A model generated the notes under the pieces. The model had not been told where the DNA came from. It made no database searches and saw only the letters and a list, made by a program, of their open reading frames with translations. Below, piece by piece: positions 3,225 to 23,445 of a DNA stretch of 64,000 bases. Within the stretch, counting starts at the first letter, position 1. The number at the start of each line of letters is the position of its first letter. Position numbers and translations under genes: made by a program. This stretch comes from Massilia frigida (GTDB taxonomy: Bacteria; Pseudomonadota; Gammaproteobacteria; Burkholderiales; Burkholderiaceae_D), in NCBI RefSeq assembly GCF_011682175.1, contig NZ_WHJG01000036.1, positions 1-64,000 on the forward strand, in the 5' to 3' direction.

Positions 3225-3362
3225 TCCGTGTACTCCTGAGTGATAGGGGCGCCGGCGCGCGGCCGTGCGTTGGCAGCCACTATAAATTGTGCCTACCGTT
3301 AACAGAACGACGCATTTCACATAAGCTTGGAAGGCCGGAACAACACCGCTGCGCTGGCCCGA

Positions 3363-3476
3363 CGGCTTGGCCTATTGGCCAGTTGGCTTTTCAAACCGCT
3401 TGCTGTAGTGTCATCAGTGTCACACCGCCGGGGCCTCCGCGCATGTCATGCGTTCGGACAAAAGGTGGCGTGGATG
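3363..3476 (+). promoter_or_regulatory. Duplicated promoter segment upstream of the CHAT operon
   Basis: Bases 3363-3396 are identical over 34 bp to 8853-8886 upstream of the histidine kinase gene, and the similarity continues at a lower level to the ATG at 3474 (8966 in the other copy). The identical core contains TTGGCCTATTGGCCAGTTGG, with a TGGCC-TATT-GGCCA dyad at 3368-3381. The segment ends with a Shine-Dalgarno-like AAAAGGTGG and the ATG at 3474, which opens only a 12-codon frame here. It is probably the binding site of a shared regulator; the response regulator encoded at 16394-17119 is the nearest candidate. Confidence 0.65.
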
Positions 3477-3512
3477 ATCCAAACGACGTTTCGGATGAGT
3501 TTGGAGTCGTAG
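3474..3512 (+). other. Vestigial 12-codon leader ORF in the duplicated promoter
   Basis: Encodes MIQTTFRMSLES then stop, two bases before a GTG at 3514. Its start codon and ribosome-binding site align with those of the histidine kinase in the related segment at 8853-8968. It therefore looks like a start region carried over when the promoter was duplicated. Whether it is translated, for example as a leader, is unknown. Confidence 0.4.
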
Positions 3513-3549
3513 CGTGAACATTCACGCGACGCCTTATGTGGAGAATAAA

Positions 3550-6500
3550 ATGCGGCGCTTTGCTCTCTCGTTTTTATTGCTCATGTTTGCCTTGACTGCA
3601 CTCGCTGCCACAGAAGCGGACAAGTACGCGGCATTTCATGCGCTCACCAGGGACCTTGCGGCAAACGTCGAGGCGACGGCCGCGCGGCTTCATGCGGAGG
3701 GAATTCAAGGCTACGCGCCCGGTAGCGATCGGCGCAGTGCCGTCGAACGTTTAGGTAGCAGGCTCGAAAAATTTTCCCGGATTCCTGCGCCGACCGAGTG
3801 GGAGATTCGAAACGCCGGCTATGTGCTGGGCGGGCTCATCGAAGAGGCACCGGAGGTCTACGCGGCAGTCATCAACGAGCCTGCCATGCTCGCCCGGCTT
3901 CATTCCGCTGAGCTGAGCATGGGGATGGAGTTCTTTGTTTCGCCGGGATTGCTTGCGCAGGGCATGAAAATTCTCGACGATCTGCTCGCCTTGGCGAAGA
4001 CCAGTCCAATTAAAAAGCCTGCTGCGGACAAGGAAGAGGAGCTCTTCGGTAGCGAGAATATCGACGATATGGTCAGTGAGCTGAAAAAGAAAGTGCTCAG
4101 GTCGCAGCCGAGGCCTTCGCCAATCGCCATATGGCGGCCCGAAGCGGGGCAATGTTCTATAGGGCGCTTGGTACCTTGCATCGAAGCGGGCGAGCCTCCA
4201 ACGAATCGCTGGATGTGCAGATCATGTCTTACCTGCTTGAAGCCAGGGGGCCAGCGTACCAGTACTATCGCCTGAACGCTTTCTACGGCAACAACTACGC
4301 ACTGGCCAATCGCCTCGGCAGCATGTTCTTCGCAAAATACTGCGCTGACATGGACAACGCCAGTTTTACGTGCTTCACCGTCATAACGCAGACGGCCTTC
4401 AACTATTACCGGCTCGGCGATAGTGTCAGCTACAGGGCTACGCTGCAACTGCTGGATAAAGCACTCGCGCGACATCCGCAGCTGCAACTGGCACTCATGC
4501 CAGTTAGTAAGGTGTCCGGAGCAGACACAGAAAGGCGGAAAAAGGCGCTGGTGGAATTGCGCTCCTACGTACCCGATATGGACCGCCTGTTTGACGGAAA
4601 TGACGGAGAGTGGGGATTCGAGGAGATGGAAAGGATTGCGGCCAACCTGATGCAAGCCCAAGCTGTGGGCTACTGGATCGCGCGAGCTGACGGCAAGCAC
4701 TTCCCCCGGATCGCAAAGGCAATGGCCGCCGCCAAGGATGAGGAAATGTCCGAAGAAGACTGGGCGGCAGTGTTGATCTCCATGGCCTATTTAAGTGCCG
4801 CCGCACTCAATGACTACGATATATTACTGGCGTCCGTTAACGCTATGCGCGACTTATATGCCGCACTCGCGGCAGCAGAAGAGGTAAAGATCGACCTCAC
4901 CCCCTTCGATCTCATGAAGCTTGGAGCGCTGTACAGCGCCAACCAGCTGAAAGAGGCACGGCAACTCGTCAAGACAATAAGGAATAGCCCCGCATTGCGC
5001 TCGCCCCACATCGATGCCGTGCCAGCGCCTTTGAACGTCCTGTCCAGCTGCCACGCGGCGGCGAACTTCGCGCCGAACGAGGATGCGGATCAGGTAATGC
5101 CCGCTAAAGAATATCTATTAAGTAAGATCGCCATGAAGATCGGGCTGAAAATGGGCGAACGGGTACCGACAGCGGCGGTCCGCTCGATCATGGAATACGA
5201 GGCCCGCGAATTGTTCGCAAAAGCATCCGGCATGGACGAGGCACGTCAAGCGTTCCTGCCTTCGGATTTTGTCGCGAACTGGCCGGACTACAGCAAGGTA
5301 TTCGCAGGCGATCACGTGGCGCGAACCCGACTCGCCCAGGCGGCCAAATGCTTGCTCGCGCGGCCAGAAATCGTCATGCGCCTGGGGCAGGAGTTCGTTA
5401 ACAAAGGCAGCAAGGAACGCCAAACCCTGAATGCCGCCATTTTCACCATGCTGGCCGACAGTGGGACGTTTCAGCAGCACAGCAATGCGATCGGCAACGA
5501 AGACTTCGTTTTGTTGCAGGCTGCCTCCATCATGCAGGCGCACAACGGCATCTCCTCAGCGACGGCCCGATCCGTCTTCGCAAGCGTCGATGTCCGCAAC
5601 AGTATCCAGGAGGCAGAGCTTGGCATGGTGCGGCTTTCCGACCAATTTAACGTGGCGGCCAAGGAGCTTCACTTATCGGACATGGTAAGACGGATGTCCA
5701 CGAACAGCGCTGACGGCCTCGAGAAAATGATGTCCAGCATGATGGATCACCCAGCAGAATACGCAAGATATGCGGAACTGAGGAATCAAAGCATTGCCAC
5801 GCTGGCCGAAGTAAAGAAAGCGCTGACGGCAGACGATGCCGCTATGCTGTTGACGCTGTTTGATGACACGCTGGTATCCGTCGTAGTGCGGCACGATTCT
5901 GCCAGAATTGTGTCCACCAAGGTCTCGCGCAATGCGATGAAAAATGCCGTGGCAAAACTAAAGGCAAGTACCAATTTTCTCTCGCAGCAGAGTACCCGCT
6001 TGCCTCCCGCTTATCGTGCCGACATCGCCTGGCAGCTCTACAAGCAGTTATTCAAGCCCGTCGAGGCATTGCTCGCCGGCGCGCGCACGGTCTATCTGGT
6101 GGCAGGTGAAGATCTGGCGCTGATTCCATTTTCAGCGTTGGTCACAGCGGCGCCGCCGGCCCAGTCGGCCATCGATTTCTCGACGTATCGCCGCTTGCGT
6201 TGGCTCGGAGACAGGCTTGCCTTTGTTTCGCTTCCCTCCGTGCATTCGCTGCTAAAAACCAGCGCCGCAAACGACCGGGAAAATCCCCGTTTGCTCGGCG
6301 TCGGCAACCCGGAGGTCGCGATGCAAATGCTGATCGATCTTCGTCTATCGCCGATGCCCGATACCGCAAGCTTGCTCGACAGGGTTCGCAAGCCCGGCGA
6401 TCCGGCGCCGCTGCTACGAGCCCAAGCCAACTATGGGGGCCTGGAAGCGGCCAGCAATAGCGCAATCCTGTCGAGTGGCGACATGGCCTTGATCAACTCG

Positions 6501-6968
6501 CACGCATTGGCTGCGGGCGAGAGCGCAAAATACGGAACGCAGGAACCTGCCATTCTGCTGGCACCCACAAGCCAGGCCGATGTCGCCGATTTCCTCGATC
6601 CGTCCAAGGTGATGTCGCTGAAGCTCTCACTAAGACTGATCATGTTGCTTGCGTGCGAGACGGCGGGTGGCCGAACGATCGACAATGCCCAGCCATATGC
6701 GGGACTGGTCAATTCATTTTTCTTCGCAGGTGCGGATTCCGTTGTGGCGACCAATTTGCCGGTTGATCCGGCTGTCGCGGAAGACTTCGCGGTGAACTTC
6801 CTTCGCTACGTGAGGGACGGCAAGAAGTCCAGCGCAATGGCGTTGCAGATGGCCGCAGCCGATGTCCGTTGCGCAAACGATTCCATGGCATGCGCCGAGG
6901 GCGACAAATATGTGTGGGCCCATCCTGCGTATTGGTCGCAATTTACGCTAGTCGGTTCGGGCCGCTGA
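3550..6968 (+). CDS. Secreted CHAT-domain (caspase-like) protein, with a -1 frame change
   Basis: Two overlapping frames read as one protein of about 1139 residues if the frame shifts -1 at CTG-AAA-AAG (4081-4089): ...VSELKK then ESAQVAAEAFANRHMAARSG. The ATG at 3550 is preceded by GGAG and opens a signal peptide (MRRFALSFLLLMFALTALA). A long helical, TPR-like middle follows. The C-terminal about 300 residues are a CHAT domain (peptidase clan CD): VYLVAGEDLALIPFSAL, the His in LINSHALAAGE (about residue 985), the Cys in LLACETAGG (about 1036), then GLVNSFFFAGADSVVATNLP. Export to the periplasm is predicted. A DUF900 hydrolase gene follows after 36 bp, probably in the same operon. The frame change could be a mutation, an assembly error in the A5 run, or programmed slippage. 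Confidence 0.8.
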
Positions 6969-7004
6969 ATCCGACGTTAACGCGCTCTAAATAAAGGAGA
7001 ACAC

Positions 7005-8780
7005 ATGAGCTCATCCCATTGCCAGACCATACATGCGCATGCATGGCAAGCTGCCGCCGCCCTGTTTTTTAGTGGCATGTGTTTTGCCCAGGCCGCACCG
7101 ACGGTGTCGGAACTGATCATCAAGAACAATGCCAAAGACGGTGAGGTGTCGACCGCTACCCTGATGCACATCATTGCGACGGCGGCGCCCAAAGACAAGG
7201 ATGAGCGTGAGGTGGTGCTCAGTATGAAGCTCGATGCCCTTGAGCGCTACCTGAACAATGAGGCACCGGATAAAGCCACCGCTCTGGCGCTATCGAAAAC
7301 GGTCGTTGACGAGGCACGCGAGCTCTACGGAAAGGACAGCGCCAGGTTGATCCCTGTATTACGCCTGGCTGCAAACGTGTGCTTGCGCTCCAAAGAACCG
7401 GCCCGTGCCGTCGGTCTGCTGACCGACGCGCTGAGAGTGTCCGACATCGTTTATGGCGCCGATGACCCGGCCAGCCGTTTTGTCCTGCGCGATTTGGGCC
7501 GGATCCATGCCGCAAAAGGCGATGCTGCCCAGGCCGTACAGTTCACGAAGAAAGCAGACTATTTGAAGAAGGTGGCTCCCGCCTCGATCAAGGGCATCAG
7601 CGTCTTGGCGAGCGCTCCGCCCGCGATTGAATCGAAGCCTTATCAGCTGGTTCCCGTCTTTTTTCAGACCACCCGCACAAAAACAGGTAACGACGATCCC
7701 CAGGCGTATTTCGGCACGCAGCGCGCCGGGGCGAGCAGCTATGGCGTTTCCTACGTCAGCGTTCCGCGCCAGCGCGAGAGCGGCACAATTCCGCACGCAT
7801 CCATCCTCAAGCTCGACTTCAGCACCGATCCCAACCACCATGTGATTCTGAAGGAAATCTCCCTTTATGACGGCAGGGCTGGTTTCCTGAAAGCCATCGG
7901 CGAGAGAATGAATGCCTCCGCTCGCAAGGAATCGCTGGTCTACATCCACGGCTTCAATCAATCGTTCCAGGATGGCATGGAAACGGCGGGAATGCTGGCC
8001 GTCGATCTGGAAATCGATGGCAGCGTGGTCTCCTACGCCTGGCCCTCCAAGAAAAATGTGTTGAAGTACGTCGCGGATATGGATGAATCGAATGCCCTGA
8101 TCAATAAGGAGGCCCTTAAAGACTTGCTGGTCGACGTGTCCAGCTCGGTTGGCGCGAAGAGCGTCTACGTCATCGCACACTCGATGGGCAATCGATTGCT
8201 GCTCGAAGCGCTGCAGCTCTTGCCTTCCAGCGGTGAAAAGCGGCGTTTCGATAGCGTGATCTTCGCCTCGCCCGACGTCGAGAGCAAGGAGTTCGACACA
8301 ATGGTCGGCAAAACCTACAGCCAGGCAAGCAGAATGACGCTATACACGGCAGGGCGCGATATCCCTCTCAGTCTGTCGGAATTGATTCGCACCGGACTGT
8401 TCAATACTGATCATTTGAAGCGTGCCGGCGACCGCGATGGCGGTGTCCAGTCACTCCCATATCTGGACGTGGTCGATGCGTCCAAGGCGCAGTCGGATTG
8501 GCTGGGACACAGCAACTTCACCCAACTTGCGAAGGATGACTTGAGGGCTTTGTTGTGGCTGCGCGTCCCGGCAACCAGGCGCTGCGTGCTACAGGCACAG
8601 ACTGGAGGATGGCGCTACGATCCGCAGGAAAACTGCAGCTCTGGCGCCTTTGGCATGGCGACCTTATTTTATAGGCGTCTCCAGGATACGGCCAAGGCGG
8701 CGGCGCAGCTCGATAGCACTGCCGGCCCGCTGGCGAAGCAGGCCAGTTCTATCCTCAAAGCCATGCTGCCGACGAACTAG
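7005..8780 (+). CDS. Secreted DUF900-type alpha/beta hydrolase with TPR-like N-terminus
   Basis: Protein of 591 residues. The ATG at 7005 has a strong AAGGAG upstream and a signal peptide ending near CFAQAAPT. Residues about 30-200 are helical and TPR-like (EARELYGKDSARLIPVLRLA, DALRVSDIVYGADDPASRF). From about residue 215 comes the hydrolase: VFFQTTRTKTG, the oxyanion-hole region LVYIHGFNQSFQ, the nucleophile elbow VIAHSMGNRLL (Ser in AHSMG), ASPDV, and a late DWLGHSNF supplying the likely catalytic His. This is the DUF900 (esterase/lipase-like) family. Substrate unknown. Being secreted and in one operon with the CHAT protein suggests a joint envelope function. Confidence 0.85.
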   Translation: MSSSHCQTIHAHAWQAAAALFFSGMCFAQAAPTVSELIIKNNAKDGEVSTATLMHIIATAAPKDKDEREVVLSMKLDALERYLNNEAPDKATALALSKTVVDEARELYGKDSARLIPVLRLAANVCLRSKEPARAVGLLTDALRVSDIVYGADDPASRFVLRDLGRIHAAKGDAAQAVQFTKKADYLKKVAPASIKGISVLASAPPAIESKPYQLVPVFFQTTRTKTGNDDPQAYFGTQRAGASSYGVSYVSVPRQRESGTIPHASILKLDFSTDPNHHVILKEISLYDGRAGFLKAIGERMNASARKESLVYIHGFNQSFQDGMETAGMLAVDLEIDGSVVSYAWPSKKNVLKYVADMDESNALINKEALKDLLVDVSSSVGAKSVYVIAHSMGNRLLLEALQLLPSSGEKRRFDSVIFASPDVESKEFDTMVGKTYSQASRMTLYTAGRDIPLSLSELIRTGLFNTDHLKRAGDRDGGVQSLPYLDVVDASKAQSDWLGHSNFTQLAKDDLRALLWLRVPATRRCVLQAQTGGWRYDPQENCSSGAFGMATLFYRRLQDTAKAAAQLDSTAGPLAKQASSILKAMLPTN

Positions 8781-8852
8781 CGCCGACCCGGCGATTCGTG
8801 CATCCGCCTCACGCGGCAATGGGCTGGTGAGCGCGCCGCGCGCGTTTCCTTC

Positions 8853-8968
8853 CGGCTTGGCCTATTGGCCAGTTGGCTTTTCAAACGGCTTACTGTAATG
8901 TCATGAGATTCGCGCCGCCGGGGGCGCCACTGCGCCTGTCATGCTTTCGCTAAGGGGTGGCTTGGATG
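8853..8968 (+). promoter_or_regulatory. Duplicated promoter segment upstream of the hybrid kinase
   Basis: Second copy of the segment at 3363-3476, identical for the first 34 bp (8853-8886), then diverged with a 2-bp length difference before the ATG. It contains the same TTGGCCTATTGGCCAGTTGG core with its TGGCC/GGCCA dyad and ends in AAGGGG eight bases before the kinase ATG at 8966. No other feature lies between the hydrolase stop at 8780 and this promoter. Confidence 0.65.
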
Positions 8969-10732
8969 ACGTCAGAAGTCAGGGATGCAACCGCACACAG
9001 CCTCGAAGCCGAGCTCCTCCGGCTGCTCGCGCGCCAGGGCCGCCGCGTGCCCATCCCGGTCTTTCTCGGCGCCGTCATGATCGCCGCCCTGGCGTGGGGA
9101 CGCGTCCCCATCTTGTACCTTGGCGCCTGGCTGCTGCTGGTGGCGCTGGTGCTGGTGGCGCGCTGGGTCATCCTGGGACGGCTGCCGGCGCTGGCCGACC
9201 TGAGCGACGCGCGCCGCCTGCAAATCTGCATCGCCCTGAGCGCCCTGAATGGCTGCACGCACGCGCTCTCGCTGCTCTTTTTCACGGCCCTGCCCGAATT
9301 CCAGCGCGCCATCCAGTCCCTGCTGCTGGTGGGGCTGTGCGCCGGTTCGGTCGCCACCACCGCCGGTTACCGCCCGGTGTTTCTCGCCTTCCTGCTGCCG
9401 GTGATGGCGCCGCTGGTGGCCCAATGGGCGCTGATGGGCCATGGCGGCTGGATCGGCGGCGCCACCGCGCTCATCCTGGCCCTGTTCGGCGCGGTGCTGA
9501 TCGCCCTGGCCAGCGACTCGTTCCGCCTGTTTCGCGAATCGTTCGAAATCCGCCTGCAGCAGGCCAGCCTGAACGCGCAGCTCAACACGGCGCTGAGCGC
9601 GGCCGAAGCAGCCAACCGCGCCAAGACCCGCTTCCTGGCCTCGGCCAGCCACGACTTGCGCCAGCCGGTGCATGCGCTATCGCTGTTCGCGGGCGCGCTG
9701 GGCATGCAGCAGCTCGACGACGCCAGCCGCGACATCGCGCGCCACATGGGGCAGGCGCTGCAAACCCTGTCGGGCCAGCTGGACGCCTTGCTCGACGTCT
9801 CCAAGCTCGATGCCGGCATCGTCCAGGTCCGGCCGGCGGAACTGGAGGTAGCGCCTTTTCTCGCCTGCGTGTTCGACGAATACCTGCCGGCCGCCCAGGC
9901 CCGGGGCTTGCAGCTGACGCTCGACTGCGGCTGCGCACCGCTGATCGTGACCGATGAAGTGCTGCTCGGCCGGCTGGTGTGCAACCTGGTCGACAACGCC
10001 ATCAAGTACACCTCCCACGGCACGGTCAGCCTGAGCCTGGACGGGCACGGCGGGCAGGTGGTGCTGGCCGTGGTCGACAGCGGTAGCGGCATTCCGCTCG
10101 CCGAGCACGACCGCGTGTTCGAAGAGTTTTACCAGCTCGGCAATTCCGAGCGCGACCAGAGCAAGGGCCTTGGCCTGGGCCTGTCGATCGTGCGCCGCCT
10201 GGCCGACCTGCTGCGCCTGCGCCTGGAAATGGTGTCGCTGCCGGGCGTCGGCACCAGCTTTTACCTGGTCTGCGATCAACATGGCCAGCAGCGCAGCGCC
10301 GAACGCCCGGCCGCCGCGCCGGCCGCCCCGATTGCGGCCCGCCATGTGCTGGTGGTCGACGACGACGCCTCGGTGCGCGCCGGCATGCAGGCCTTGCTGC
10401 AAGGCATGGGTGCGCAAGTCACGCTGGCCGGCGGCACGGCGGAGGCGCTGGTGGCGGGCGCGCACTGGTGTCCGGACTTGCTGCTGGTCGATTTTCGCCT
10501 GCGCGACGGCGACAACGGCCTGGCCACCGTGGCGGCGCTGCGCCAGCTCTACCCGCGCCTGCCCGCCATCCTGATCAGCGGCGATACCGCACCCGACCGC
10601 CTGCGCGAAGCGAACAGTGCCGGCCTTCCATTGCTTCACAAACCCGTCGCTGCCGACGTCCTCAGGCAAGCCCTGAACGAGGCCAGCGCACTTCAAGCGA
10701 GCGCGTGCCATGGACCAGACGAACAGCGGTAA
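8966..10732 (+). CDS. Membrane hybrid sensor histidine kinase/response regulator
   Basis: Protein of 588 residues from the ATG at 8966 (AAGGGG eight bases upstream; a GTG at 8957 is too close to any ribosome-binding site). About six hydrophobic segments fill residues 28-180. HisKA follows with the phosphoacceptor His in FLASASHDLRQPVHALSLF (about residue 229). The HATPase_c domain has DNAIKYTSHG, VDSGSGIPL and GLGLGLSIVRRL. A receiver domain (HVLVVDDDAS, Asp in LLLVDFRLRDGD, Lys in LLHKPV) ends the protein. There is no large periplasmic sensor, so it may sense the membrane itself. It overlaps the next gene by 23 bp, so translation is probably coupled. The NarL-type regulator at 16394-17119 is its likely partner. 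Confidence 0.92.
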   Translation: MTSEVRDATAHSLEAELLRLLARQGRRVPIPVFLGAVMIAALAWGRVPILYLGAWLLLVALVLVARWVILGRLPALADLSDARRLQICIALSALNGCTHALSLLFFTALPEFQRAIQSLLLVGLCAGSVATTAGYRPVFLAFLLPVMAPLVAQWALMGHGGWIGGATALILALFGAVLIALASDSFRLFRESFEIRLQQASLNAQLNTALSAAEAANRAKTRFLASASHDLRQPVHALSLFAGALGMQQLDDASRDIARHMGQALQTLSGQLDALLDVSKLDAGIVQVRPAELEVAPFLACVFDEYLPAAQARGLQLTLDCGCAPLIVTDEVLLGRLVCNLVDNAIKYTSHGTVSLSLDGHGGQVVLAVVDSGSGIPLAEHDRVFEEFYQLGNSERDQSKGLGLGLSIVRRLADLLRLRLEMVSLPGVGTSFYLVCDQHGQQRSAERPAAAPAAPIAARHVLVVDDDASVRAGMQALLQGMGAQVTLAGGTAEALVAGAHWCPDLLLVDFRLRDGDNGLATVAALRQLYPRLPAILISGDTAPDRLREANSAGLPLLHKPVAADVLRQALNEASALQASACHGPDEQR

Positions 10733-13700: not shown

Positions 13701-16397
13701 CATCCGCAGGTCAAGCCCAACCTGGCCAGCTATTTGTGGAAGCGAAAACGCGACATCTGGATCGTCGACCTGCGCACCAGCAGCGGCATGCCGCACGCGC
13801 GCCACCCGTGGTCATTCGAGGATGCGGCGCATGCCGACATCCCGGTCGCGATCGACCATATCTGCCGCGCCAGCGGTTTCGGCTATCTGGACGTGGTCGC
13901 CCACTGCATGGGCGCGGCCATGATCAGCATGGCCATCCTGGCCGAGCCGCGCGCAGGGGAGCGCTTTGCGGCGGAGCGGCGGGCCATGAATGGCAGTATC
14001 CGGCGCCTGGTATTGTCGCAGGTGGGGCCGCTGGTAGTGTTCAGCCAGGCCAATATTTTCCGCGCCTATCTGCTCGGCTACCTGCGCCAATTGTTGCCGC
14101 TGCGTGATTTCGCGTTCCGGATCGACGGCGAACCGGGCCTCATGGACGAGGTAATCGACCGCCTGCTGGCCACCACCCCGTATCCAACGGAAGAATTTCA
14201 CCTTGAAAACCCGTGGTGGCCGTGGGGCAAGGCCGATTTCGTGCGCACGCGCCACCGCATGGACGCGCTGTACGGGCGCGACTTCAGCCTGTGCAATGTG
14301 GACCGCCCGGTGCTCGACCATATCGATGACTTCTTCGGGCCGCTGAGCATCGAAACGGTATCGCAGGCCATGCATTTCGCGCGCCTGAAAACCATCACCA
14401 ACCGCGCCGGACGCAATGTGTACGTGTCGCGCGAGGACATCAAGAAACGCTGGATCTTCGATACCATGAGCGTGCACGGCCTGGACAACGGCTTGTCCGA
14501 TCCGGCCACCCTGGGCCGCATGGATGCCATGTTCAAGGACACCCTGTTCGCCTATGTCACCCGGCCAATGGAGGGATTCGGCCACCAGGACTGCTTTATC
14601 GGGCGCGACGCGCGCAAGGTGTTCGCGGCCGTGGAGGCGTTCATCGGACCGGAATCGACCTCGCTCGCGCAATACAAGACGAGCGACTCGCCCAGCGTCG
14701 ACCGCTGGTCGCTGCGCACGCCCTGGAGCGGGCCGGTACGCACCAGTGTCGACACGCCGAACGGCTTCCAGGTCGGGGCCGGATCGGACCCCGCATACAC
14801 GCGCGCGCTGCTGGTCGCCTTTATTCCAGTCAAGGTCGATGGCGAACACTACCGCATATGGTCGGGCACGGCCGGCGATTCGCCCAAGGCCGCTTTGTGG
14901 CGCGGCCTGCAGCTGTACGCCGGCGCCGGCGACGAGAATGGCTGGATGCAATTCGCGCCGGCGCGGCCGGAGGGCGCGGACGGGTTGCTGATGCTGCTCT
15001 TCTATGACGAAAAGCCGACCTTCTGGGATAACAGGGTGGACTTGCCGCAGTTCCTCCATCCGTCCTTGCGCGGCAGGGAGTTGATGGGGCTGCTGCGCGG
15101 GCGGCGCGCCATGGCCAGCCCGCCCATCCTGCCGGGCAACCCGCTCACGCTGGCGGCGATCCTCGCCGAGCTGCTCGATTTCGTCGACAAGACCTTCGAC
15201 GATATCGTCCTCAGCATCGAGCGCGAACTGGCGGCCAGCCTGGCGACGACGCTGTTGCCGGGCCTGCTCGGTTTCGGCACCGGGGCCATTGGCAAGCAGC
15301 CAGCGCGCCTGTGCTTTGCGATGGGCAGTTGCCAGTACCCGGCCGGTATGCTCGACGAGGAACCGGCGTTCGCTTCCTTTGGGCGTCTATCCAGGCGGCT
15401 CGACAGCGATGACGGCACGCTGCCAGCCTTCCTGCTGCTGCTGGGCGACCAGATCTACAGCGACGCCACGGCCGGCCTGTTCGACCCCAGCGCGCTGGAC
15501 GACCGCTATGTGCAGCCCTACGAAAAGCTGTTCGCGAACGAACACGTCAAGTCGGTCATGCGGCGCCTGCCCACCTTCATGATGCTGGACGATCACGAGA
15601 TCATGGATAACTGGGAACCGCTGGCCCATGCGCGCCGGGTCGACCCCAACCTGACGGCGGGCCGCGCGGGCTATCTGCGTTTCCAGCGCACCAACGCGCT
15701 GGTGCCGTCGCTGGGGGCGGCGCAGGCGCCGCACAGCCTGGAGACGGGAACGCCGCTGCACGGTTTTGCCTTCTTCATCGCCGACACCCGTACCGAACGC
15801 CAGCCGCGTTCCGCAGCCACGGCGGCCAGCGCCTCCATCATGAGCGAGCGCCAGTTCAAACGCCTGCTCGACTGGCTGCTGGCCCAGCAGCGGGCCGATC
15901 CGGAGCGGCCCAAGTTCATCGCCTCGCCATCGATCCTGGTGCCGCGCCGGCTGCGCGCCATCCACGGCGGCCCGGGCGCGCACTGCCTGCGCTCGGACGC
16001 GTGGGATGGCTACCCGGCGTCGATGCAGCGGCTGCTGGCGCACATCGGCGGCCATGGCATCCGCAACGTGGTGTTCCTTTCCGGCGACGAGCATCTGTCG
16101 TGCACGGCGACCTTGCTGGTCCAGCCACCCGGCGCGGGGCCGGCGGTCACGATCCGCTCGTTTCACAGTTCGGCCCTGTACGCGCCATATCCGTTCGCCA
16201 ATTCGATCGCGGAGGACCTGGCCGACAGCGGGGACGCCTTCGATTTTGCGGACCCGGCCGGCGCGTTTTCCGGCCGCTTCGACTGTACGGTGGAAGAGGT
16301 GGTGTATGCCAAAGGCGACGGTTTCGCGCTGGTCACGGCCGAACAGCGCGGCGGCCGCTGGGACATCGTCTGCACCTTCGACCGCGCCGCGCTCTAG
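10710..16397 (+). CDS. Trifunctional fusion: GMC oxidoreductase / alpha-beta hydrolase / PhoD-like phosphatase
   Basis: A single uninterrupted frame of 1895 residues. Residues 1-610 are a GMC flavoprotein of the cholesterol-oxidase-like branch: FAD loop VLIVGSGYGGAV (about 37-48), CAMCGDCATGCNLNAKES (about 227), VHPLGGCAIG (about 535) and GVNPALTITALALRAIDK. Residues about 640-900 are a lipocalin- or ferredoxin-like linker I cannot name. Residues about 975-1320 are an alpha/beta hydrolase: VVMIHGYSASGTTF, elbow VVAHCMGAAM with Cys instead of Ser, and late FGHQDC. Residues about 1530-1895 are PhoD-like: FAMGSCQYPAG, LLGDQIYSDA, MLDDHEIMDNW, FLSGDEHLSC. No signal peptide is seen. A lipid- or sterol-like substrate is an inference. 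It overlaps the kinase start-to-stop and ends in a CTAG shared with the convergent regulator. Confidence 0.88.
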   Translation: MDQTNSGKRAPAWLSQGVEQLFSTLKEEGEPALDVDVLIVGSGYGGAVAAAGLAGSAKDGKPVTVWVLERGKEYLPGSFPGRMSELAGHVRFSTSNGAAPSGEREGLFDVRVGSDVSALVANGLGGGSLINAGVMVRPRGAPLKKLAALVGELEPYFVTALDALGARVGGAANTIEKHAGPAPAKYEALRKMAGRLQPNDGVFSPAAITVAMGERPSAGGVGLSACAMCGDCATGCNLNAKESLDTNLLYQAWKQGAKLYTGATVLRIERDARLGAWCVHVNYTDAQLRARRDLPYKIRARKLILAAGTFGSTEILLRSQCEELRFSSAIGQKFSSNGDMIAVAYDGPDQVNGVADESVPPRERQVGPTITGMVDLPGRFGDLLVEDMAVPGPLRRLFEEMATTANSLHELGRRDSGAHSGLPDERDPCALDPARLGRSALLAVMGDDGAGGALELVGGKDDASGDGAIRVRWPGLRDHPLFEDQVRALGGAPDSGNPGPGPNGTILPNPLWKMLPESMEFLLAKRRGPLLTVHPLGGCAIGANALDGVVNDCGEVFRAQAGDDGAVYDGLMVLDGAILPGALGVNPALTITALALRAIDKLKRKWGWSTAPAAAPSPVLRPRFRPEQEPETPRPTTAEFIERMSGPATLVDRRGVKLHCVIELSLHFSTIDLAALVLPQGGKAAPIQRALQVDPATSTLDIFDATQWDDWKLRRDVPGEMPPPPLLKAGVAGTLHFFHREASTPQQRRSNSLRPWLLNRGLRDLWQWGAERLSHGGLSFTRATARQLWGDVRTRYDNAMAVASHAGEVRLFEYALVIGAAEVAGARLDAGKFSGQPILGCKRFTYARASNPWNQLMRMELGAFPCLRTGTRPELELDTNFLVRENVPLFRILDQQDQPSALADVVALGAYLLRLLLTIHVWSLRKPDATPMRVPARLPGIIPGLPHPEISELEVDQLPDGTPVHVRLTRYRCDQQDPDRPPVVMIHGYSASGTTFAHPQVKPNLASYLWKRKRDIWIVDLRTSSGMPHARHPWSFEDAAHADIPVAIDHICRASGFGYLDVVAHCMGAAMISMAILAEPRAGERFAAERRAMNGSIRRLVLSQVGPLVVFSQANIFRAYLLGYLRQLLPLRDFAFRIDGEPGLMDEVIDRLLATTPYPTEEFHLENPWWPWGKADFVRTRHRMDALYGRDFSLCNVDRPVLDHIDDFFGPLSIETVSQAMHFARLKTITNRAGRNVYVSREDIKKRWIFDTMSVHGLDNGLSDPATLGRMDAMFKDTLFAYVTRPMEGFGHQDCFIGRDARKVFAAVEAFIGPESTSLAQYKTSDSPSVDRWSLRTPWSGPVRTSVDTPNGFQVGAGSDPAYTRALLVAFIPVKVDGEHYRIWSGTAGDSPKAALWRGLQLYAGAGDENGWMQFAPARPEGADGLLMLLFYDEKPTFWDNRVDLPQFLHPSLRGRELMGLLRGRRAMASPPILPGNPLTLAAILAELLDFVDKTFDDIVLSIERELAASLATTLLPGLLGFGTGAIGKQPARLCFAMGSCQYPAGMLDEEPAFASFGRLSRRLDSDDGTLPAFLLLLGDQIYSDATAGLFDPSALDDRYVQPYEKLFANEHVKSVMRRLPTFMMLDDHEIMDNWEPLAHARRVDPNLTAGRAGYLRFQRTNALVPSLGAAQAPHSLETGTPLHGFAFFIADTRTERQPRSAATAASASIMSERQFKRLLDWLLAQQRADPERPKFIASPSILVPRRLRAIHGGPGAHCLRSDAWDGYPASMQRLLAHIGGHGIRNVVFLSGDEHLSCTATLLVQPPGAGPAVTIRSFHSSALYAPYPFANSIAEDLADSGDAFDFADPAGAFSGRFDCTVEEVVYAKGDGFALVTAEQRGGRWDIVCTFDRAAL

Positions 16398-17119
16398 CAG
16401 GCGCTGTGGGTGCGCTCCGGCGCGCGGTAGCTGGGCTGGCTTGACTCCACGTCGGGAAACAGGTGCAGGCGGTTCGCCTCGTACACTGCCGCCGTGCGGT
16501 TGAGTACGCCCAGCACCTTGAACGCGATGGCCAGGTGATGCTTGACCGTGCTCGGGGTCACGCACATTTCGCGCGCGATCACCTTGTTGCTCTGACCGCG
16601 AATCGCGCTGAACAGGGCTTCCCGCTGGCGCGGCGACAGTGCGTCGAGCACCGCATTGTGCGCAGACGGCGGGCGCGCAGGCGGCTGTGCGCCGGGAAAT
16701 TGCGGGCGCGGCAGCTTGCTCGGCAGCGCCACGCCGCCGTTGAGCACGGTTTCGAGCGCCTCCAGCAAGGTGTTCAGGTCGGACGCCTTGGACACATAGC
16801 CCGCGGCACCATGCTCGATGGTCTGGAACACGATGCGCGGATCGGTCTCGCCCGAGACGATCACGATGCAGGCCGTATCGTAAGCCTTGCGCAGGATGGC
16901 CAGGTTGTCCATGCCGTCGTTGCCGGGCATGTGCAGGTCGAGCAAAATCACCTCGAAATGCTGACCGGCGCTGGCGTATTCCAGTGCTTCCTCGCGGCTT
17001 TGCGCGACCAACAGCGTGTTGCCCTTTTGCAGGCGGTCCAGCGCCATGGTCAGGCTTTCCGTGAACATCTTGTGGTCATCGACAAGCAGCAAGCGCACGA
17101 CGGGCTCCTTTGAGGACAT
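16394..17119 (-). CDS. NarL/FixJ-type response regulator
   Basis: Protein of 241 residues. Receiver: RLLLVDDHKMFTES, phosphoacceptor Asp61 in VILLDLHMPG, Ser in CIVIVSGETD, Lys in AGYVSKASDL. A linker rich in Pro leads to a LuxR-type HTH (LSPRQREALFSAIRGQSNKV, then IAREMCVTPSTVKHHLAIAF). It is convergent with the fusion gene; the two stop codons share the four bases CTAG (16394-16397). It is divergent from the lipoprotein operon across a 210-bp region carrying dyads. Its position among the kinase operon and the lipoprotein operon makes it the obvious output of the kinase and the candidate binder of the shared TGGCC...TGGCCAGTTG element. Confidence 0.93.
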   Translation of the reverse strand: MSSKEPVVRLLLVDDHKMFTESLTMALDRLQKGNTLLVAQSREEALEYASAGQHFEVILLDLHMPGNDGMDNLAILRKAYDTACIVIVSGETDPRIVFQTIEHGAAGYVSKASDLNTLLEALETVLNGGVALPSKLPRPQFPGAQPPARPPSAHNAVLDALSPRQREALFSAIRGQSNKVIAREMCVTPSTVKHHLAIAFKVLGVLNRTAAVYEANRLHLFPDVESSQPSYRAPERTHSAC

Positions 17120-17122
17120 CGT

Positions 17123-17165
17123 CCGGACTAGTGCTCAGTCCGGTACTGGCCCGAATGGCCAGTTG
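17123..17165. promoter_or_regulatory. Dyad operators between the response regulator and the lipoprotein operon
   Basis: Two elements lie close together just upstream of the regulator start. A perfect inverted repeat CCGGACT (17123-17129) / AGTCCGG (17137-17143) is followed by TGGCCCGAATGGCCAGTTG (17147-17165), which resembles the core TGGCCTATTGGCCAGTTGG of the two duplicated promoters, with one base more in its spacer. The 210-bp region (17120-17329) also holds a TATACT that may be a -10 for the lipoprotein operon. Function as operators is inferred. Confidence 0.5.
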
Positions 17166-17329
17166 ACCCCGTAAGGCTAGCACATTGTCCATCCGGAATG
17201 GGCCCTCGGACTGGCCATGCGGACAATTTCGCACGCTGGTGCAACTTCCTATACTGGCTCCAGCTACCGGGCGGCGGACTGCGATGCCAACCGGACTGCC
17301 TTCCATCGGATGCGGACAAGGGAATCAAC

Positions 17330-18859
17330 ATGAATACTTTTCATCGGCTTGGCTGCGCGTCGCTGTGCCTGGCGTTATCGGGCTGCGCCGGGATGCACCT
17401 GTACAGCGAGAAGCGCGACCAGCAAGGCAAGGACCTGAAGGCGGCGTGGGCGAAAGTGGACTTGAACGGCTATTTCGCGGCCATGCATGAGCAGCGCAAG
17501 AAACTGCTCAAGGCGGACATCGATAGCATCGCCGCCGGCCGCAGTGCCGAGGTCGACAGCGCGCTGGTGCTGCTGCTCGATGCTCCGGTCGCCACGGGCG
17601 GCCCCAGCGAGAGAACGTTCTATTCGATCCTGGACGGCGAGCTCAAGCCGCTGGCGGCCACGACGGACGCCAGCGGCTTCCTGGGCGCGGTAAAACGATG
17701 GAAGAGCCTGTCACTGCAGCTGCAGGCAAACCGGGCCAGGCAAACCGCCTATCGCAAACTGCTCAAGGCCGAAGGCGCCGACGCACCATCCTGCAGTGCG
17801 GTCAATGTTGCCGCTAACGGCGAGCTGAGCAAGTATGCCGCCGAGTATCTTGGTGAGCTCGGCAAGCTGTGCGCAAGCGAAGTAACGCTCGCGGGCAATC
17901 AGGACGCGCTGATCGCGAAGCTACCGGCCGGGACGCTGCTCACCAGCGCCAAGAACACAGCCGATCTCGAGCGAAAGCACGCCGCTCTCGCCGCCGATGC
18001 CGATGCCTTGATGGCACAGTACCGCGCCTCGCTGGAGGAGTATGCGGCGGCGGTGCGCGCCAGCCAGCCCGGCAGCGCGCCTTCCGTGCGCTTGACCGCA
18101 CTCGGCAAAAAGGTGCGCAGCGCGCTGGCACAGATGGCGACGCTCAACAATGTGCTCGGCAACGAGGCGCTCGCCGACGACCGCGTCAAGCGCATCGACG
18201 CCATCCTGCGCAAGCTGGGCACCAGCGCCGATCCCGGCAAGGATGCCAGCCGCGCCGAACTGGCGGCGGTCCTGGTCACGCGCGTCGCCGACGATGTGCA
18301 GGTGCTCGCCGATCTGGACAAGCCGCTGGTTCCGATGAGTCTGCTGATCCGGCGCGACCTGGAGAAAAACCGGGCCGACCTGGCCACGGTCCAGGCCGAC
18401 CTGGTTCGCAAGGACATTGACCTGGTGCGGGCTGCCCAGGCGTCCCGGGTGGCCGAGGCAGTCGAACTGCTGGTGGCGCGCTCAAGACTCGACACCCTCC
18501 AACGCTGCTACAGGAGCATGCGCTTGGTCGACGCCATTGCCTTTCCTGCGGTTAAGGTCAATCCCCCCTGCGACGATGCCGACAGCCGGGCAGCGCTGTA
18601 CGACGCCGCCGGCCGCTATTCCTATGCGATCGGCGACCAGCGCGCCCGCACCTTGCGGCTCGAAGAGTTGCGCCGCGACCTCACGCGTGAACGGCAGCTC
18701 GCTTTCGCCCAGGCCAACGCCGGCCAATGGGCGGTGCTGATCGATGCCACTGCGGGACAGGCGGTGGCGTACGCGGCGTCGGGCCAGAAAGCGTCCGATT
18801 ACAAAGACCTGGTCCAGGCACTGTCCCTGCTCTGGATTGGACGAGGAGTGAACAAATGA
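17330..18859 (+). CDS. Lipoprotein of unknown function, coiled-coil rich
   Basis: Protein of 509 residues from the ATG at 17330 (AAGGGA seven bases upstream). The signal ends in a clear lipobox, CLALSGCAGM, so it should be acylated and held at a membrane. The rest is mostly helical and charged with heptad-like stretches (DLERKHAALAADADALMAQY, RRDLEKNRADLATVQADLVR), typical of envelope structural proteins. I recognise no domain family. It is the first gene of five that overlap or nearly touch; its stop overlaps the next start (ATGA). Confidence 0.75.
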   Translation: MNTFHRLGCASLCLALSGCAGMHLYSEKRDQQGKDLKAAWAKVDLNGYFAAMHEQRKKLLKADIDSIAAGRSAEVDSALVLLLDAPVATGGPSERTFYSILDGELKPLAATTDASGFLGAVKRWKSLSLQLQANRARQTAYRKLLKAEGADAPSCSAVNVAANGELSKYAAEYLGELGKLCASEVTLAGNQDALIAKLPAGTLLTSAKNTADLERKHAALAADADALMAQYRASLEEYAAAVRASQPGSAPSVRLTALGKKVRSALAQMATLNNVLGNEALADDRVKRIDAILRKLGTSADPGKDASRAELAAVLVTRVADDVQVLADLDKPLVPMSLLIRRDLEKNRADLATVQADLVRKDIDLVRAAQASRVAEAVELLVARSRLDTLQRCYRSMRLVDAIAFPAVKVNPPCDDADSRAALYDAAGRYSYAIGDQRARTLRLEELRRDLTRERQLAFAQANAGQWAVLIDATAGQAVAYAASGQKASDYKDLVQALSLLWIGRGVNK

Positions 18860-19470
18860 CGATCCGCTTTCTACCTTGCATGACGGCCGCGCTGCTGCTC
18901 GCGGGCTGCGCCACCTCGCCGGTGGCGCTGGAAGAAGCGCAGCACGGCCTGTCCCTGAGCGCCCAGCTCAAGCAGGAGCTGGCGCTGTACGCCAGGCGCC
19001 AGGCCGCCGTCGACGACATGCGCAAGGAGCAGCTCGGCGACAACATCAAGAGCTACAACGCACGCCTGCTCGACTTGCCGGGCGACGAACAGCTATATGA
19101 GTTCAGCGGCCAGGCCAAACGGCTGGCGGCGCTCAGGCAGTTGCGCAGCAGAGTGGCATTGCTGGGCGCCGCTGTGTCGGCCAAGGAAGCGGGCGTGGCC
19201 CACGTCGAGGAACTGATCAGCCAGCTGGTCACGCCGCTTCCTCCGCTGGGCGAGGCGCTCGGCGCGACCGGCAAGGCGTTCGGTGCACTGGGCAAGGAGT
19301 TGCCGTTTGCCGAGCGCGCCGCGCTGGCGGCATCGTTTTTTGAAGAGGTGCGCGAAGAAGCAAAGAAGAACCAGGCTGCGGCAACCGATATCGCCTCTGC
19401 CACCGCCAAGGAGCTCCCACAGAGCGCCGACGCCGTGGTGAGCACCGCAGTCAATCCATCCACCCACTAG
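18856..19470 (+). CDS. Lipoprotein of unknown function
   Basis: Protein of 204 residues. The ATG at 18856 overlaps the upstream stop and has GAGGAG eight bases before. The signal MTIRFLPCMTAALLLAGCAT gives a lipobox LAGC. The body is helical (LKQELALYARRQAAVDDMRK; FSGQAKRLAALRQLRSRVAL) with a glycine/leucine stretch VTPLPPLGEALGATGKAFGA. No family recognised. Together with the preceding lipoprotein it may form a membrane-anchored coiled-coil complex; that is inference from composition and overlap. Confidence 0.75.
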   Translation: MTIRFLPCMTAALLLAGCATSPVALEEAQHGLSLSAQLKQELALYARRQAAVDDMRKEQLGDNIKSYNARLLDLPGDEQLYEFSGQAKRLAALRQLRSRVALLGAAVSAKEAGVAHVEELISQLVTPLPPLGEALGATGKAFGALGKELPFAERAALAASFFEEVREEAKKNQAAATDIASATAKELPQSADAVVSTAVNPSTH

Positions 19471-19479
19471 GAGAACAAT

Positions 19480-19836
19480 ATGTCCGACTCAGCATTACCC
19501 TGGCTGCAAAGCGTCGAAACCATTTTGCAGCGCGCCATCGCCGACGTCACCATCGAATACGAAACCGCCAGCCTGAAGGACCGGGCGAAGGTGTACATGG
19601 TGCTGGCCAAGCTGCGCGAGCGCCGCAACACGGTCAACAACGCCATCATCGACATCCTTCAAGAACGAATCCAGGTCCGGCCGCCGTCGGCCGAGACGGT
19701 GGCGCGTAGCAAGGCCCTGACCGACGCGCTGCAATTGTTGGTTTTTACCATCGACAAATACGATGCCGTACTGAAACTGCTGTCCGATCTTTCCGTTCTG
19801 ATCAGCAAAACCATCATGGAGCCCGCACATGTCTAA
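19480..19836 (+). CDS. Small helical protein of unknown function
   Basis: 118 residues, no signal peptide, no cysteine. AGGAG precedes the ATG at 19480. It is almost entirely predicted helix (WLQSVETILQRAIADVTIEY, KVYMVLAKLRERRNTVNNAI). It lies between two lipoproteins and a radical SAM enzyme in one tight operon and overlaps the next gene by 8 bp. Family unknown. Confidence 0.7.
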   Translation: MSDSALPWLQSVETILQRAIADVTIEYETASLKDRAKVYMVLAKLRERRNTVNNAIIDILQERIQVRPPSAETVARSKALTDALQLLVFTIDKYDAVLKLLSDLSVLISKTIMEPAHV

Positions 19837-20143
19837 GCCAACCGACCTGAGCACCGCGCTGACGGCGCGCCTGCGTTATCACTACACCAAGGAGCAGATT
19901 GCCGGTCTCACCGATTCGGTGGCCGAGCTGCATGACATGGGGTTCAAATTCGACGACATCTTCCCGGACGGCATACTCAATCCCGACGCCCTGGTCCTGA
20001 AAACCTCGGTGCCGATGGCCGGGCTGGAGGCGGCGATCATGAAAATCCAGAAGCATCCCGAGCTGCGCCGCATCGAGATTTTCCCTTACGGCATTCCGGT
20101 ACGCGATCTCTGGCGCATGCATGTCAAGGTCGGCCTGAAATGA
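19829..20143 (+). CDS. Small protein of unknown function preceding a radical SAM enzyme
   Basis: 104 residues, soluble, no cysteine. The start overlaps the upstream stop and the stop overlaps the ATG of the radical SAM gene (ATGA). The sequence has an N-terminal helical half (LRYHYTKEQIAGLTDSVAEL) and a compact second half (IEIFPYGIPVRDLWRMHVKV). It is not obviously a RiPP precursor, since no leader/core boundary is visible. It could be a recognition partner or a substrate of the enzyme; neither is shown by the sequence. Confidence 0.7.
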   Translation: MSKPTDLSTALTARLRYHYTKEQIAGLTDSVAELHDMGFKFDDIFPDGILNPDALVLKTSVPMAGLEAAIMKIQKHPELRRIEIFPYGIPVRDLWRMHVKVGLK

Positions 20144-21219
20144 ACGCCGCCGCCACGCCTGGCGCCGGCCCGACCGCCAGCGCCATCTTCCATCTGCATC
20201 CTCTGCGCAGATGCAACCTGGCGTGTGCGCACTGCTATTCCGACAGCGCCCCGCACGCCGCCGGCCTGCTCAGCTTCGAGCAGGCCGGCGGCGCGATCCG
20301 GCAGGCGGCGGCGTGGGGCTACACCCGGCTCGCCATCTCGGGCGGCGAGCCGCTGCTCTACCCGTGGCTGGCCGATGTGGTGGCGCTGGCGAAGGACTGC
20401 GGAATGCAGACGGCGCTCATCACCAACGGCCTGCTGGTGCCGCACCGGAGCAACCTGGACATCCTGCGCCAGGTCGACACGGTGGCGGTCAGCATCGACG
20501 GCCTGGGCGCCACGCACGACGCCCTGCGCCGCCGGCCGCGCGCCTTCGCCGGCGTGCTGCACAGCATCCGCCTGCTGGCCGACGCCGGCATCGGCTTTCA
20601 CATCATCTGCGGCGTGAGCGGCGAGAACCTGGATGATATCGATGAACTGGCCGCGCTGGCCTGCGACCAGGGCGCGGCGGCGCTCCAGCTGCACCCGATC
20701 TCGGCGGCCGGACGCGCGCTCACCACCATGGCCGACGCCGTGCTCGGCCCCGACGACGCCAACCTGCTGTACCTGGCCGGCACGCTGCTCGCGGCGGCGT
20801 ACGCCGGGAAGATGGGCGTGCACACCGACCTGGTGCACCGCAATTGCGTCATCGCGCGGCCCTGCATGATCTATGCCCGCGCCGCCGGCGCCGGCGATAC
20901 GGACGCGCGGCCAGCCGACCTGCTCGGCGTGCTTGTGCTCGAACCGGATGGTACGGTCAATCCGGTCAGCTTCGGCTTTGGTTCCCTGTACGGCTTGGGG
21001 AACATTCTCGAACAGCCGCTTGGATCGATGTGGGAACCCTGGCTGGACGACGGTTACCGCCGGCTCGTGCGGCTGGGACGCGGCCTGCTGGACGAACTTG
21101 GCGCGCCATCCGCCCCGTCAGTGTTCAATCCCAGCGACGTGCTGCGCGTCGCCTCGCATCGGCTTGGCGCAACCCTTATGCGGCGTGGCGTTGCGCGGGA
21201 GGCGCTGGCGCTGGGCTGA
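20140..21219 (+). CDS. Radical SAM enzyme
   Basis: 359 residues. The canonical CxxxCxxC [4Fe-4S]/SAM-binding motif is at C25-C29-C32 (RRCNLACAHCYSDSA), followed by the GGEP motif in ISGGEPLLYPW and SIDGLGATHDALRRR, all typical of the MoaA/PqqE-like branch that modifies peptides. After about residue 230 there are only two further close cysteines (HRNCVIARPCMIYAR), so a full seven-Cys SPASM domain is not evident. It ends the operon of two lipoproteins and two small proteins. The substrate is unknown; one of the neighbouring small proteins is a possible target. Confidence 0.88.
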   Translation: MNAAATPGAGPTASAIFHLHPLRRCNLACAHCYSDSAPHAAGLLSFEQAGGAIRQAAAWGYTRLAISGGEPLLYPWLADVVALAKDCGMQTALITNGLLVPHRSNLDILRQVDTVAVSIDGLGATHDALRRRPRAFAGVLHSIRLLADAGIGFHIICGVSGENLDDIDELAALACDQGAAALQLHPISAAGRALTTMADAVLGPDDANLLYLAGTLLAAAYAGKMGVHTDLVHRNCVIARPCMIYARAAGAGDTDARPADLLGVLVLEPDGTVNPVSFGFGSLYGLGNILEQPLGSMWEPWLDDGYRRLVRLGRGLLDELGAPSAPSVFNPSDVLRVASHRLGATLMRRGVAREALALG

Positions 21220-23361: not shown

Positions 23362-23445
23362 GCAGACTCAGGGGAAAATTTCATTGTTCCAATTTTACAT
23401 GGTTGCATTCCCTATGGAAAAATCCCTTGCGGCCGGCGTTCGGGC

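What the first reader, a model, noticed from the sequence alone, without database searches (positions are those of the whole stretch)
3363..21219. Candidate co-regulated envelope system: CHAT protein, hydrolases, trifunctional enzyme, lipoproteins, radical SAM
Seen: about 18 kb of unrelated enzyme classes with one hybrid kinase, one NarL-type regulator, and a repeated promoter core before three transcription units (3368-3384, 8858-8874, 17147-17165). Known: CHAT is a caspase-like peptidase fold; DUF900 and the fused alpha/beta domain are hydrolases. Inference: a single two-component regulon controls a membrane-lipid or cell-damage response involving a secreted protease-like protein, lipoproteins and a radical SAM-modified partner. 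I know of no described system with this combination.
Basis: partly seen in the sequence, partly recalled or inferred. Interest (0 to 1): 0.85.

Follow-up and report, generated by a model that had tools for sequence, protein, structure and literature searches.

The report
Caspase-hydrolase gene pair under borrowed promoter
An old sensor-and-enzyme gene cluster in a relative of Massilia seems to have gained a foreign pair of secreted enzyme genes sitting behind a copy of its own promoter, so the region looks like a patchwork sharing one switch and not one ancient system.

Summary
The promoter core occurs exactly at 3367-3386 and 8857-8876, with a related dyad at 17147-17166. The locus is a patchwork of three units. 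(1) Hybrid kinase, GMC-oxidase/lipase-like/PhoD fusion and NarL regulator: an old module; the kinase is directly upstream of the fusion in 45 of 77 kept loci. (2) Two lipoproteins, two small proteins and radical SAM: beside that module in 3 of 7 relatives read; its halves occur apart elsewhere. (3) CHAT plus DUF900 hydrolase: low GC, CHAT not found in 16 of 16 genus mates, inserted before the kinase behind a diverged ~117-bp copy of the kinase promoter. CHAT's reading frame switches at an A-rich run. New here: DUF900 hydrolases recur beside CHAT or caspase genes, in 4 of 5 strong same-order hits and 2 Sulfitobacter plasmids, exported by eye where the N-terminus was seen, and one Nostoc protein fuses CHAT to DUF900 beside VMAP conflict genes. 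Best reading: capture of a CHAT-hydrolase pair into a local two-component regulon; binding is untested.

The parts
3363..3482 (+). Copy 1: dyad, promoter, leader and the beginning of a 16-codon relic of the kinase start (GTG GCG TGG ATG ..., 3465-3512)
   Evidence: 96/117 to copy 2; first 48 nt 45/48, rest 51/69; Fisher p 0.0066; left flank 3100-3362 aligns with G016 up to the promoter; relic read by eye
3550..4092 (+). CHAT gene, N-terminal part (frame A) with signal peptide
   Evidence: coding-potential scan and translation; signal peptide judged by eye; no Pfam family
4084..4093 (+). A-rich run AAAAAGAAAG around which the coding frame switches
   Evidence: coding-potential scan; frame B opens after the stop at 4077
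4131..6968 (+). CHAT body (frame B), caspase-like CHAT domain
   Evidence: PF12770 E 1.3e-31; NSHAL from body residue 789, LACETAG from 840
7005..8780 (+). TPR + DUF900 alpha/beta hydrolase with signal peptide (by eye)
   Evidence: PF05990 E 8e-36, PF13424; AHSMGN from residue 391
8853..8972 (+). Copy 2: promoter and leader of the kinase operon
   Evidence: 108/118 to the G016 kinase leader
8957..10732 (+). Membrane hybrid histidine kinase
   Evidence: HisKA, HATPase_c, Response_reg; N-terminal hydrophobic segments
10710..16397 (+). GMC oxidoreductase / unassigned middle domain / lipase-like alpha-beta hydrolase / PhoD fusion, 1895 aa
   Evidence: middle region model pLDDT 87.7, no PDB match at E<=0.001
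16394..17119 (-). NarL/FixJ-type response regulator
   Evidence: Response_reg + GerE
17147..17166 (+). Third operator-like dyad
17330..18859 (+). Lipoprotein LP1
   Evidence: lipobox-like LSGCAG, translation; relatives
18856..19470 (+). Lipoprotein LP2
   Evidence: lipobox-like LAGCAT, translation; kept next to LP1
19480..19836 (+). Small protein (118 aa), no family found
19829..20143 (+). Small protein (104 aa), modelled as two alpha-beta-beta repeats, gene partner of the radical SAM enzyme
   Evidence: also next to a radical SAM gene in G118 and G004
20140..21219 (+). Radical SAM enzyme
   Evidence: PF04055 E 8e-23

Best explanation
The region is a patchwork regulon. Shown: an old module (hybrid kinase, GMC/lipase/PhoD fusion, NarL regulator) carries an inverted repeat (TGGCC-N4-GGCCA) at the kinase promoter and a related one at the lipoprotein/radical SAM promoter. 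A foreign-looking pair, CHAT protein plus TPR-DUF900 hydrolase, both with signal peptides by eye, lies between the promoter and the kinase, behind a second, diverged copy of the same promoter and kinase start. Inferred: the phosphorylated regulator binds the dyad next to the -35 region and activates the three units on an envelope or lipid signal seen by the kinase. Inferred: CHAT cleaves and activates the hydrolase (or clears its inhibitor) in the periplasm, and the hydrolase attacks an envelope ester; a natural CHAT-DUF900 fusion in Nostoc makes joint action likely. Inferred: the cassette came by homologous exchange inside the promoter from a relative in which it already used this promoter.
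For: Repeat and third dyad. The left flank aligns with G016 up to the promoter, and in G016 the kinase follows at once with no CHAT or DUF900 found. The promoter half of copy 1 is conserved while its leader is not (45/48 against 51/69, p 0.0066). GC 0.576-0.579 and third-position GC 0.69-0.71 for the pair against 0.685-0.696 and 0.88 for kinase and fusion. CHAT not found in 16 of 16 genus mates. Kinase directly upstream of the fusion in 45 of 77 kept loci; regulator homologue in 24 of 77. CHAT/caspase beside DUF900 in 4 of the 5 non-own hits (G356, G415, G509, G560) and in 2 of 7 DUF900 plasmid regions opened. A single Nostoc protein carries CHAT (E 5e-9) and DUF900 (E 2e-43) beside VMAP, AAA and FGE-sulfatase genes.
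Against: The dyad was found upstream of the kinase only in the two closest relatives, 2 of 47 upstream regions; looser GGCC/TGGC dyads appear in 11 of 47 at varied places, without a chance control. It is missing at the G231 kinase promoter. No sigma-70 consensus promoter was called at copies 1 and 2. CHAT is split over two frames, so this pair may be partly dead. Low GC alone is weak: the conserved 118-aa and 104-aa genes are also at 0.57-0.59. Copy 2 is not much closer to G002 (99/117) than copy 1 is (94/117), and the Fisher test for copy 1 against G016 gives p 0.057. Of 14 CHAT loci examined for DUF900 none had a match better than E 0.01, and 12 other DUF900 loci showed no CHAT or caspase by tblastn, a test that missed the Nostoc fusion. 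No donor was found.
Confidence: 0.62

Rival explanations
1. The repeat is only a by-product of the insertion: the kinase start region was duplicated when the cassette landed, CHAT is a decaying passenger, and no shared regulation is meant.
For: Copy 1 carries kinase start codons (by eye) and a diverged leader; CHAT frame switch; CHAT not found in the 16 other genus genomes.
Against: The dyad/promoter part of copy 1 stayed at 45/48 while the rest fell to 51/69; the third dyad at 17147 is kept in G016; a 945-codon CHAT body and a 591-codon hydrolase remain open.
Confidence: 0.25
2. One functional envelope system, whose units were lost in relatives.
For: Related dyad at three units; lipoprotein/radical SAM operon adjacent in G002, G016 and G231.
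Against: CHAT and DUF900 at 0 of 77 fusion loci; different base composition; G016 has the uninterrupted arrangement.
Confidence: 0.08
3. The repeated element is a weak transcription terminator or another RNA hairpin, not an operator.
For: A pattern scan calls TTGGCCTATTGGCCAG + TTGGCTTTTC terminator-like at both copies.
Against: In G016 the element lies between divergent genes upstream of the kinase, where no + strand transcript needs ending; no terminator-like hit at the third site; no Rfam match.
Confidence: 0.07
4. CHAT is made whole by programmed -1 frameshifting at the A-rich run, so that the frame switch regulates how much protease is made. This can hold together with the best explanation.
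For: Clean switch of coding potential from frame A to frame B around AAAAAGAAAG.
Against: The slip heptamer would be G AAA AAG, not the strong A AAA AAG (recalled rule); no relative found covers this stretch; a one-base mutation or assembly error explains it as well.
Confidence: 0.15

Closest known systems
Caspase / alpha-beta hydrolase pairing of VMAP ternary conflict systems (PMC7159879, passages read)
   Same: A caspase-superfamily peptidase with a neighbouring alpha/beta hydrolase gene, said there to be always paired in VMAP systems. In Nostoc sp. HK-01 a CHAT-DUF900 fusion stands beside VMAP-M14/VMAP-C, AAA and FGE-sulfatase genes, which puts DUF900 in such a system.
   Different: Here and in the linked Proteobacterial loci the proteins whose N-termini I saw carry signal peptides or lipoboxes by eye, and no VMAP, vWA or MoxR domain was found among the 17 protein pieces scanned around this locus.
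TPR-CHAT (Csx29) of type III-E CRISPR Craspase (search listing only)
   Same: CHAT caspase-like domain behind a long N-terminal region.
   Different: Signal peptide, no CRISPR protein hit among the nine proteins tested, partner is a hydrolase.
NarL/FixJ two-component systems with hybrid kinase
   Same: Kinase and regulator domains; inverted repeats near the promoters.
   Different: Operator binding and phosphotransfer are not tested; the kinase's operon partner is a three-enzyme fusion.
Cholesterol oxidase, gastric/acid lipase, PhoD phosphatase
   Same: The fusion profile matches solved cholesterol oxidases (E 1e-31), gastric lipase (3e-11) and alkaline phosphatase D (3e-12).
   Different: All in one chain with an extra middle domain; far below NCBIfam's cut-offs for cholesterol oxidase (120.7 of 850 bits) and PhoD (23.3 of 1000).

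Membership tests
NarL-type two-component regulon | Kinase with HisKA and HATPase and a REC+GerE regulator | tested here: met
NarL-type two-component regulon | Regulator binds the shared operator of the member promoters | not testable with these tools
   dyads found and partly conserved; binding needs the bench
CHAT protease family | CHAT domain above the curated cut-off | tested here: met
   110.6 bits, cut-off 24
CHAT protease family | Catalytic His-Cys pair and protease activity | tested here: inconclusive
   candidate His (NSHAL) and Cys (LACETAG) present; placement from recall; activity untested
VMAP ternary conflict system | Caspase-superfamily peptidase beside an alpha/beta hydrolase gene | tested here: met
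   CHAT and DUF900 adjacent
VMAP ternary conflict system | VMAP, vWA and MoxR components at the locus | tested here: not met
   17 protein pieces between 229 and 24597 scanned with Pfam, none has these domains; the same library does recognise them in Nostoc; genes beyond 24.6 kb were not scanned
Prokaryotic viperin | Radical SAM enzyme above the viperin cut-off | tested here: not met
   72.3 bits, cut-off 180; PADLOC gives pVip hits (E 6e-22), which I take as general radical SAM similarity
Cholesterol oxidase (NF058674) | Score above the curated equivalog cut-off | tested here: not met
   120.7 bits, cut-off 850

The most novel reading that the evidence does not exclude
Bacteria carry a recurrent CHAT or caspase plus DUF900 hydrolase module, related to cytoplasmic VMAP conflict effectors but exported, that works in the envelope as a protease-triggered hydrolase; it moves between genomes, and here it has been wired into a resident two-component regulon by taking over a copy of that regulon's own promoter.
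Probability: 0.34. Interest if true: 0.74.

Novelty: new variant of a known kind. Interest (0 to 1): 0.54.

Why it matters
Caspase-like proteases paired with alpha/beta hydrolases are described for conflict systems (PMC7159879, passages). An exported version would put a caspase-like switch in the bacterial envelope, and the CHAT-DUF900 fusion in Nostoc ties the two arrangements together. The locus also gives a readable case of regulon capture, with an uninterrupted relative (G016) for comparison. Independently, the kinase plus oxidase/lipase/PhoD fusion is a widespread Proteobacterial module for which two paper searches showed no description, and its enzymes suggest a substrate class (an esterified, hydroxylated, perhaps phosphorylated lipid).

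Tried and rejected
One-system reading: rejected on linkage. Mobile or viral origin of the pair: no relative in viral contigs by DUF900 patterns, no DNA match in plasmids; not shown. Close CHAT relatives: none in genome contigs by pattern; at E<=1e-15 only 27-37% matches to parts of the protein in 11 other of 399 order genomes; in plasmids 56 records, all under 60% identity. Dyad beyond the closest relatives: 2 of 47. Fold of the fusion's middle region: no PDB match at E<=0.001. 104-aa protein: weak matches, best E 9e-4 to PilO. Rfam and tRNA scans: nothing. PADLOC: hits only for the radical SAM protein. Paper searches: searches found no paper; one search listed two and four whose titles concern other subjects.

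Selection: the 4 of 5 uses all non-own hits (E<=1e-25, 399 genomes). G487, the fifth, has no CHAT or caspase by tblastn and none among the four of its proteins scanned with Pfam. Nine plasmid regions were opened: seven hold DUF900 and two of these have CHAT/caspase neighbours (H12, H13), a third (H14, Nostoc) is the fusion; of the two CHAT regions, H2 has no DUF900 match and H1 was not screened. In one search twelve further DUF900 loci (L091, L092, L093, L107, L197-L199, L230-L234) gave no CHAT or caspase match, nor did the 3.7-kb L007; some flanks were only 5 kb, in L232 and L234 DUF900 itself was not re-found, and the test missed the Nostoc fusion, so these negatives are weak.

Full report
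What is there. The stretch holds, in order: promoter copy 1; a CHAT gene; a TPR-DUF900 hydrolase; promoter copy 2; a membrane hybrid histidine kinase; a 1895-aa fusion of GMC oxidoreductase, unassigned middle region, alpha/beta hydrolase and PhoD phosphatase; a convergent NarL-type regulator; a dyad; and five co-directional genes (two lipoproteins, 118 aa, 104 aa, radical SAM). Lipoboxes and signal peptides were judged by eye.

The repeat. The 20-mer is exact at 3367 and 8857, the repeat is 76 nt at 87% and 96/117 over about 117 nt, and a search of the genome found no other copy. It runs into the first codons of the kinase: copy 1 still reads GTG GCG TGG ATG, the kinase's own start, and meets a stop at 3510-3512 (by eye). 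The third site at 17147 is a dyad with spacer 5 in place of 4, kept in G016 and partly in G002 and G231. The pattern TGGCCN{3,4}TGGCCAGNTGR has 17 places in 17 genus genomes, 6 of them at this locus.

Three histories. In G016 a TonB-receptor gene, the promoter and the kinase follow each other (148 bp between the tblastn hit and the kinase start) with no CHAT or DUF900 found in the 20 kb. The window's left flank (3100-3362) aligns with G016 right up to the promoter. So the CHAT-DUF900 pair lies between the original left flank and the kinase. Its GC is 0.576-0.579 against 0.685-0.696 for kinase and fusion, and third-position GC 0.69-0.71 against 0.88; but the conserved 118-aa and 104-aa genes are also low (0.571, 0.59), so GC alone proves little. 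CHAT was found in none of the 16 other genus genomes and in 10 of 245 family genomes, our own included; distant DUF900 relatives (29-35%) occur in 4 of 16 genus mates. Copy 1 is about as far from copy 2 as from G002 and G016 (96/117, 94/117, 94/117); copy 2 agrees with G016 at 108/118 and with G002 at 99/117. The differences of copy 1 from copy 2 sit in the leader (51/69), not in the first 48 nt (45/48; p 0.0066; the same test against G016 gives p 0.057). That fits either arrival of the cassette with a related promoter, or duplication followed by selection on the operator half.

The old module. An alignment of seven fusions found 175 relatives in genome contigs, 77 distinct loci kept, Proteobacteria by title: Massilia rubra, Janthinobacterium, Roseateles, Aquabacterium, Solimonas, Halieaceae, Mesorhizobium, Ensifer, Bradyrhizobium and others. 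The kinase is directly upstream on the same strand in 45 of 77; 4 have it elsewhere; 28 have none above 200 bits, 6 of these with short flanks; the regulator is found in 24 of 77. In one cluster of 17 loci the neighbour is a large protein whose one scanned representative (L152, Mesorhizobium) is a class III cyclase with an AAA domain. A profile of the fusion matches solved cholesterol oxidases (1e-31), gastric lipase (3e-11), lysosomal acid lipase (4e-7) and alkaline phosphatase D (3e-12). A sterol-like or other ester lipid as substrate is inference. The middle region (residues 600-960) gives a confident model (pLDDT 87.7, pTM 0.77) without a PDB match at E<=0.001.

The lipoprotein/radical SAM operon. 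It lies beside the module in 3 of the 7 relatives read (L060, L061, L062; not L063-L065, nor L066, a 5.4-kb contig) and in 1 of 77 loci, which is the same Janthinobacterium. LP1 relatives occur in 9 of 240 family genomes; four of these, our own included, are the linked ones at 55% or more; the five weak ones (25-30%) lie by an LP2-like gene, with no fusion or radical SAM match nearby, though one (L216) has kinase and regulator matches. The 104-aa protein with a radical SAM enzyme occurs without the rest in G118 and G004. So the operon is itself two pairs put together.

The CHAT gene. Coding potential lies in frame A from 3550 to about 4092 and in frame B from about 4080 to 6968. The signal peptide is in frame A, the CHAT body in frame B. 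Mutation, assembly error and programmed frameshifting remain open.

The pair elsewhere. DUF900 is rare in the order: 6 of 98 genomes by Pfam, own included. The five non-own hits with E<=1e-25 among 399 genomes were read over up to 20 kb. G415 has DUF900 next to a TPR-CHAT gene; G356 has TPR-CHAT about 2.6 kb upstream; G560 has a WD40-caspase directly upstream and a second caspase before it; G509 has a divergent CHAT; G487 has none found. The N-termini seen carry a signal peptide or lipobox by eye, in some cases after an internal start. Sulfitobacter plasmids of SK012 and THAF37 carry CHAT, caspase and DUF900 hydrolase side by side. In Nostoc sp. HK-01 one 646-aa protein, without a signal peptide by eye, holds CHAT (residues 125-270) and DUF900 (401-612), followed by VMAP-M14/VMAP-C, AAA and two FGE-sulfatase genes: a natural fusion inside a VMAP-type conflict locus. 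Against this: twelve other DUF900 loci gave no CHAT or caspase by tblastn, and none of 14 CHAT loci examined (L089, L090, L094, L105, L108-L117; some contigs short) gave a DUF900 match better than E 0.01, so the link is a feature of part of each family. In print, caspase and alpha/beta hydrolase genes are said to be always paired in VMAP systems (PMC7159879, passages); searches for DUF900 with CHAT domain or with caspase found no paper in the held library.

Mechanism and likelihood. Shared operator used by the local NarL protein: about 0.6. The pair as an insertion: about 0.85. CHAT and hydrolase acting together: about 0.6 for the pair family, less for this copy because of the frame switch. 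The weak terminator-like look of the element is a rival I hold unlikely, since in G016 it stands between divergent genes.

Noticed in passing
1306-2165: IS6-type element (36-nt inverted ends, DDE_Tnp_IS240) that cuts the TonB-receptor gene short; the 8 bp next to its two ends do not match, which suggests a rearrangement. The receptor gene of G016 also looks damaged, lacking about 116 residues.
   Followed up: partly
L196:7149-15972 (Nostoc sp. HK-01 plasmid): CHAT-DUF900 fusion protein beside VMAP, AAA and two FGE-sulfatase genes, one of them with GUN4.
   Followed up: partly
12507-13589: Middle region of the fusion protein forms a confidently modelled domain with no PDB match at E<=0.001; aligned in 53 sequences.
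   Followed up: partly
19829-21219: 104-aa protein with two alpha-beta-beta repeats and an FPxGI-like motif, paired with radical SAM also in G118 and G004: a small recurrent two-gene unit.
   Followed up: partly
L152:5813-9919 and a cluster of 17 loci: Beside the fusion gene stands a large protein; the one representative scanned is a class III cyclase with an AAA domain, so the fusion keeps company with signalling genes in more than one lineage.
   Followed up: partly
22213-24600: Two tandem paralogues with TonB_C and Sel1 repeats, convergent to the LysR gene.
   Followed up: no
17124-17144: Palindrome CCGGACTAGTGCTCAGTCCGG between the regulator and the third dyad, kept in G002; possible autoregulatory site.
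   Followed up: no
20140-21219: At the place where the G118 enzyme reads PVCFGFG the window's radical SAM protein has Ser for Cys; a possible lost auxiliary-cluster ligand.
   Followed up: no
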